Shown here: piece by piece, positions 15,631-15,801 of the stretch
How positions within the stretch are numbered: the first letter of the stretch is position 1
How the letters are laid out: the number at the start of each line of letters is the position of its first letter
Origin: Candidatus Bipolaricaulota bacterium
Lineage (GTDB): Bacteria; Bipolaricaulota; Bipolaricaulia; RBG-16-55-9; DRXL01
NCBI GenBank assembly: GCA_938091745.1
Contig: CALLJK010000016.1
Location: 16,910 to 80,909, forward strand
Reading direction: 5' to 3'
Length of the DNA stretch: 64,000 bases
Program-made: the position numbers and the translations under genes
Notes under the pieces: model-generated
The model's database searches: none
What the model was told of the DNA's origin: nothing
What the model saw: only the letters and a program-made list of their open reading frames with translations

Positions 15631-15801
15631 ATGCCAGAGCGCATTACAAGACCTATGCCGCAAGACCCACTGACTAGGCCCGAAGACGAGGGGCCGCGCA
15701 CGCCCCGCGTGCCCAAGCCGGACACCGAGAGACTTCTCGAGCGGATGCGCCGCGTTGACCCACGCCAAGCCCAACGCTACCGTCAGCGCAGCGGGGAGTA
15801 G
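15631..15801 (+). CDS. ubact: UBact-like ubiquitin-like modifier (Pup analog), 56 aa, C-terminal Gly-Glu; absent from the ORF track
   Basis: ATG at 15631, TAG at 15799-15801: MPERITRPMPQDPLTRPEDEGPRTPRVPKPDTERLLERMRRVDPRQAQRYRQRSGE; proline/arginine/acid-rich N-half, short helix, RYRQRSGE tail; sits between dop and prcB. Confidence 0.9.
   Translation: MPERITRPMPQDPLTRPEDEGPRTPRVPKPDTERLLERMRRVDPRQAQRYRQRSGE

What the first reader, a model, noticed from the sequence alone, without database searches (positions are those of the whole stretch)
15631..15801. Unlisted 56-aa UBact-like ubiquitin-like modifier between dop and prcB
Seen: ATG 15631 to TAG 15801 fills the dop-prcB gap almost exactly (6 nt on each side). 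The product is MPERITRPMPQDPLTRPEDEGPRTPRVPKPDTERLLERMRRVDPRQAQRYRQRSGE. Established: Pup and UBact are small, mostly disordered modifiers ending in Gly-Glu/Gln, encoded beside Dop/PafA and 20S subunits; UBact is the version reported from Gram-negative phyla. Inference: this is the conjugation tag of the operon. It already ends in Glu, so deamidation would not be needed and Dop would act mainly in removal. It has a single Lys (residue 29).
Basis: partly seen in the sequence, partly recalled or inferred. Interest (0 to 1): 0.9.

Follow-up and report, generated by a model that had tools for sequence, protein, structure and literature searches.

The report
UBact protein tag in bacterial proteasome operon
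The small gene is real and encodes UBact, a known bacterial counterpart of ubiquitin that sits in a complete set of proteasome genes, so it is a well-placed new copy of a known family rather than a new kind of thing.

Summary
The ORF exists exactly as described. It is UBact: PF20513 72.4 bits (cut-off 27.8) and NF033388 73 bits (cut-off 35), with no Pup (PF05639) match. It is under purifying selection and lies in the order dop-UBact-prcB-prcA-pafA in a Bipolaricaulota (Acetothermia) genome. The finding does not mention the proteasomal ATPase (ARC/Mpa-type), which lies in the same window at 51753-53525 (-). Among 40 relatives, 16 of the 17 with Pup-ligase genes have UBact. The exception has both genes cut by contig ends, and no genome lacking Pup-ligase has UBact. 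NCBI already names UBact in this phylum, so novelty is low. (1) Terminal Glu is not a lineage constant: Glu/Gln has switched at least 6 times across UBact loci. (2) Lys29 is not conserved. (3) UBact-associated ATPases end in two aliphatic residues ([VI][VI]-COOH) instead of the actinobacterial GQYL, while the PrcA pocket Lys is kept. Point 3 is the one lead I did not find described. Conjugation, deconjugation and degradation are inferred from homology, not shown.

The parts
15631..15801 (+). UBact, 56 aa, ubiquitin-like conjugation tag ending RQRSGE
   Evidence: PF20513 72.4 bits, NF033388 73 bits; purifying selection; same place in relatives
14122..15624 (+). dop, predicted depupylase/deamidase (de-UBactylase), 500 aa
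   Evidence: PF03136 535.5 bits; best PDB match Dop 5lrt/4b0r 356 bits, Dop-loop motif WDYRDEDPLRDARGW and catalytic Asp98 aligned
15808..16602 (+). prcB, 20S proteasome beta subunit; predicted propeptide 1-46, catalytic Thr47
   Evidence: TIGR03690 137.8 bits (below the actinobacterial equivalog cut-off of 191.9); residue 47 aligns with residue 1 of mature beta chain 1q5q_H
16599..17339 (+). prcA, 20S proteasome alpha subunit
   Evidence: TIGR03691 80.1 bits; PDB PrcA match, pocket Lys in QQKIFEIYDR aligned with LQKISELYDR
17377..18825 (+). pafA, predicted UBact-protein ligase, 482 aa, no Dop-loop
   Evidence: PF03136 409.2 bits; PafA and Dop equivalog models tie at 288.6/288.3 bits; Asp71 in GRLYID aligned with the catalytic-loop Asp; motif kept and Dop-loop motif absent in 33 of 33 relatives
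51753..53525 (-). ARC/Mpa-type proteasomal ATPase, annotated start TTG uncertain, tail ...RRAGEMVV
   Evidence: PF17758, PF16450 and AAA domains; best PDB match Mpa 7ljf/7px9 334.7 bits over 84-581; TIGR03689 443 bits, below the 504.75 cut-off

Best explanation
The ORF is the UBact gene of a complete Pup/UBact-type proteasome system. The disordered 56-aa tag would be joined through the side-chain carboxylate of its C-terminal Glu56 to lysines of target proteins by the PafA homologue (17377-18825), using ATP. Its helix-forming C-terminal half (about residues 30-50) would dock on the coiled coils of the ARC/Mpa ATPase (51753-53525, -), and the ATPase would thread the tagged protein into the PrcAB 20S core. 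The Dop homologue would remove the tag. Because Glu is already encoded, deamidation is not needed for this particular gene product. Shown here: gene identity, coding status, operon order, co-occurrence, conserved catalytic positions. Inferred: every biochemical step.
For: Curated-profile hits for UBact. Both Dop and PafA present, each matching solved structures. Predicted catalytic Thr in PrcB and pocket Lys in PrcA. ATPase in the same window. UBact directly between dop and prcB in most of 58 named loci; in the three loci where sequence was available but dop is not adjacent, both ligase-family genes lie elsewhere in the genome. All-or-none co-occurrence with Pup-ligase in 40 relatives. Strongest constraint in the C-terminal half, where 14 of the last 16 columns are invariant or at least 90% conserved apart from E/Q. 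No Pup gene in the genome.
Against: No experiment. UBact and Pup are not linked by sequence at a convincing level (hhalign probability 1.6%, E 0.031), so transfer of mechanism rests mainly on the neighbouring enzymes. The second ligase-family gene is called PafA by lack of the Dop-loop and by order, not by a decisive profile score.
Confidence: 0.95

Rival explanations
1. The tag is conjugated but serves mainly non-degradative labelling or amino-acid salvage, with the proteasome acting on other routes.
For: Some actinobacteria keep pupylation without a proteasome (PMC3511204). In this genus the ATPase gene is unlinked from the operon, so the parts could be regulated separately.
Against: prcB, prcA and UBact are immediate neighbours throughout, and every intact system found also has the proteasomal ATPase or sits in an incomplete contig.
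Confidence: 0.1
2. The ORF is a chance open frame in an intergenic gap and is not translated.
For: A frame of this length arises in about 0.2% of shuffled gaps, and the protein is only 56 aa.
Against: dN/dS about 0.03-0.15 among congeners, 27 database homologues, profile hits over cut-off.
Confidence: 0.01
3. It is a true Pup (PF05639) diverged beyond recognition rather than a UBact family member.
For: End-anchored pattern similarity over 27 columns (LL..M/I..V...A...R.Y.Q..G[EQ]) in the profile comparison.
Against: No PF05639 hit in the protein or in the genome and relatives. hhalign probability is 1.6%.
Confidence: 0.03

Closest known systems
UBact (PF20513 / NF033388), described by Lehmann et al. 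2017 (title seen only in citing papers; contents recalled)
   Same: Profile match over cut-off, length, ending R-Q-R-S-G-[E/Q], neighbours Dop, PrcB, PrcA, PafA
   Different: Nothing essential; N-terminal half varies freely
UBact of other Candidatus Acetothermia / Bipolaricaulota genomes (NCBI entries)
   Same: 72-91% identity in the nearest relatives, same operon place
   Different: Some relatives end in Gln; Lys count differs
Actinobacterial Pup (PF05639)
   Same: Short, predicted disordered, ends in G-[E/Q], encoded between dop and prcB, same enzyme families
   Different: No significant sequence match; ATPase tail of the system is [VI][VI] instead of GQYL

Membership tests
UBact (PF20513/NF033388) | Profile score above curated cut-off | tested here: met
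   72.4 vs 27.8 bits; 73 vs 35 bits
UBact (PF20513/NF033388) | C-terminal Gly-Glu or Gly-Gln | tested here: met
   Ends RSGE; 33 E and 23 Q among 56 relatives
UBact (PF20513/NF033388) | Encoded with Dop/PafA homologues and 20S proteasome subunits in a non-actinobacterial genome | tested here: met
   Bipolaricaulota relatives
UBact (PF20513/NF033388) | Covalent conjugation to substrate lysines | not testable with these tools
   Needs in vitro ligation or proteomics
Pup (PF05639) | Match to the Pup profile | tested here: not met
   No hit at E 10 for the protein; no hit in genome or 39 relatives while C. glutamicum control rings
Pup (PF05639) | Homology by profile-profile comparison | tested here: inconclusive
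   hhalign probability 1.6%, E 0.031, 27 C-terminal columns
Dop (TIGR03688) | Dop-loop and catalytic Asp; equivalog cut-off | tested here: inconclusive
   Loop and Asp98 present in alignment to 5lrt, but 459.4 bits is under the cut-off of 492.3
ARC/Mpa (TIGR03689) | Interdomain OB folds plus AAA; equivalog cut-off; GQYL tail | tested here: not met
   Domains present, score 443 under 504.75, tail EMVV not GQYL. Works like Mpa by architecture, but is outside the actinobacterial equivalog.

The most novel reading that the evidence does not exclude
UBact proteasomes use a distinct ATPase-to-core docking signal: a variable linker ending in two beta-branched aliphatic residues with a free carboxylate ([VI][VI]-COOH) in place of the GQYL/HbYX tail, inserted into the same conserved alpha-subunit Lys pocket.
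Probability: 0.4. Interest if true: 0.4.

Novelty: new member of a known kind. Interest (0 to 1): 0.22.

Why it matters
It adds a complete, syntenic UBact-proteasome locus, with the ATPase identified, from an uncultured phylum, and shows a clean presence/absence border inside one order and class. The repeated Glu/Gln switching offers a natural series for asking when Dop deamidase activity is needed. The conserved but non-GQYL ATPase tail makes a testable prediction about how these proteasomes are opened.

Tried and rejected
The PDB search with the UBact profile gave only chance matches. Rfam scan of the window found nothing. The library holds no full paper on UBact; PMC7203096 only cites it in the part not held, and no paper pairs Bipolaricaulota with proteasome. 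G015 first looked like a ligase-positive, UBact-negative counterexample; its dop and pafA pieces run off contig ends and the UBact-prcB stretch is missing from the assembly, so it was rejected as a counterexample. Three Armatimonadota loci without dop next to UBact also looked like exceptions; both ligase-family genes are elsewhere in those genomes. Two UBact hits in G017 are two contig ends of one locus, not a duplication. Structure prediction was not run: a lone disordered tag gives no useful model, and complexes cannot be folded here.

Full report
Observation. The ORF is at 15631-15801 (+) and encodes the sequence quoted. It fills the gap between dop (stop at 15624) and prcB (start at 15808) with 6 nt on each side. 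Mononucleotide shuffling of the gap gives a 56-aa ATG ORF in 37 of 20,000 trials, so the frame alone is only moderately unusual. Comparison settles it: against five congeners 116 of 149 differences are at third codon positions, dN is 0.05-0.10 against dS 0.5-1.8, and dN is 0.016 in the last 28 codons.

Identity. The protein matches UBact in Pfam (PF20513, 72.4 bits, cut-off 27.8) and NCBIfam (NF033388, 73 bits, cut-off 35). All 25 members of its alignment match NF033388. Database relatives are annotated as UBact from Candidatus Acetothermia and Candidatus Bipolaricaulia, and the nearest named genomes are Candidatus Bipolaricaulota. It is therefore a known family, already annotated in this phylum.

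System. Upstream is a Dop homologue: its best solved relatives are Dop (356 bits against 250 for PafA), with the Dop-loop motif WDYRDEDPLRDARGW and the catalytic Asp (residue 98) aligned. Downstream are prcB, prcA and a second Pup_ligase-family gene. The second enzyme scores equally on the PafA and Dop equivalog models and better on Dop structures than on PafA structures. Its assignment as ligase rests on the absence of the Dop-loop, the gene order, and the consistent pattern in relatives: 33 of 33 full-length relatives lack the loop motif and keep the Asp motif. PrcB residue Thr47 aligns with Thr1 of mature beta chains. PrcA keeps the Lys in QQKIFEIYDR that aligns with LQKISELYDR of M. tuberculosis PrcA; I take this to be the pocket Lys from memory, and PMC12288473 supports only the general statement that such a Lys exists. 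The ATPase is in the same window at 51753-53525 (-), with proteasomal OB domains and Mpa as its best single-ring structural relative. In this genus and one sister genus it lies away from the operon; in most other relatives it is directly upstream of dop.

Co-occurrence. In 40 genomes including the window's own, 17 have PF03136 and 16 of these have UBact; none of the 23 without PF03136 has it. The one exception, G015, has dop and pafA cut by contig ends, with the UBact-prcB stretch absent from the assembly. All 16 UBact genomes also have prcB. In 58 named loci from Bipolaricaulota, Fraserbacteria and Armatimonadota, 53 have dop directly upstream. Two of the other five begin at contig edges, and in the remaining three both ligase-family genes are elsewhere in the genome.

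Terminal residue. Of 56 UBact proteins from named loci, 33 end in Glu and 23 in Gln. On a tree of the neighbouring Dop proteins the residue changes at least 11 times, 6 of them forced by well-supported branches (quick tree, several long branches). The window's genus and its sister genus are uniformly Glu. Pup shows the same variation, and Pup-Glu species keep Dop for removal (PMC3511204; PMC12288473). This is inference. Lys29 is shared within the genus and sister genus but replaced by Arg in other families; relatives have 1-5 Lys.

Relation to Pup. UBact does not match PF05639, and no Pup gene is found in the genome or relatives. Profile comparison aligns the last 27 columns end to end in a plausible pattern, but at probability 1.6% and E 0.031, which is inconclusive. 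It works like Pup by context; membership in the Pup family is not supported.

An unremarked feature. All readable ATPases associated with UBact end in two aliphatic beta-branched residues after a variable linker: VV, VI, II or IV in 13 Bipolaricaulota sequences and in 33 of 34 loci, the one exception being a reading-frame artefact at L083 whose genome ends in DNVV (L023). Some loci are the same genome in both calls. Actinobacterial Mpa ends in GQYL (PMC12288473). I found no paper describing this, but the library is incomplete and I did not search for it exhaustively.

Verdict. As biology it is an ordinary, complete UBact locus: new member of a known kind, low novelty.

Noticed in passing
51753-53525 (-) and loci L021-L026, L036-L040, L046-L098: UBact-associated ARC/Mpa-type ATPases all end in [VI][VI]-COOH instead of GQYL, after a variable linker.
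   Followed up: partly
L035:1378-4614 (G015): The proteasomal ATPase of one relative carries an intein with LAGLIDADG domain inserted at the Walker A motif (GPPGCGK|C).
   Followed up: partly
L022 (G012), between prcB and prcA: About 6.5 kb of other DNA separates prcB from prcA in this relative; content not examined.
   Followed up: no
L027:2545-3260 (G003): About 0.7 kb between UBact and prcB, with a second partial copy of the prcB N-terminus (residues 1-57, 54% identity) upstream of the full gene.
   Followed up: no
20223-25431: Rrf2 regulator followed by nitrous oxide reductase (nosZ-like, with nos_propeller and cupredoxin domains) and NosD plus ABC ATPase; NosD matches are split over two overlapping frames (23001-24089 and 23857-25431), suggesting a frameshift or assembly error.
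   Followed up: partly
G010 and G014 (same order, family f2): These genomes lack Pup-ligase and UBact although their order otherwise has them, and the other orders of the class lack the system, so it was gained or lost within the class.
   Followed up: no
10903-12267 (-): Tryptophanase/tyrosine phenol-lyase family protein (697 bits to the tryptophanase subfamily model) next to a peptide deformylase.
   Followed up: no
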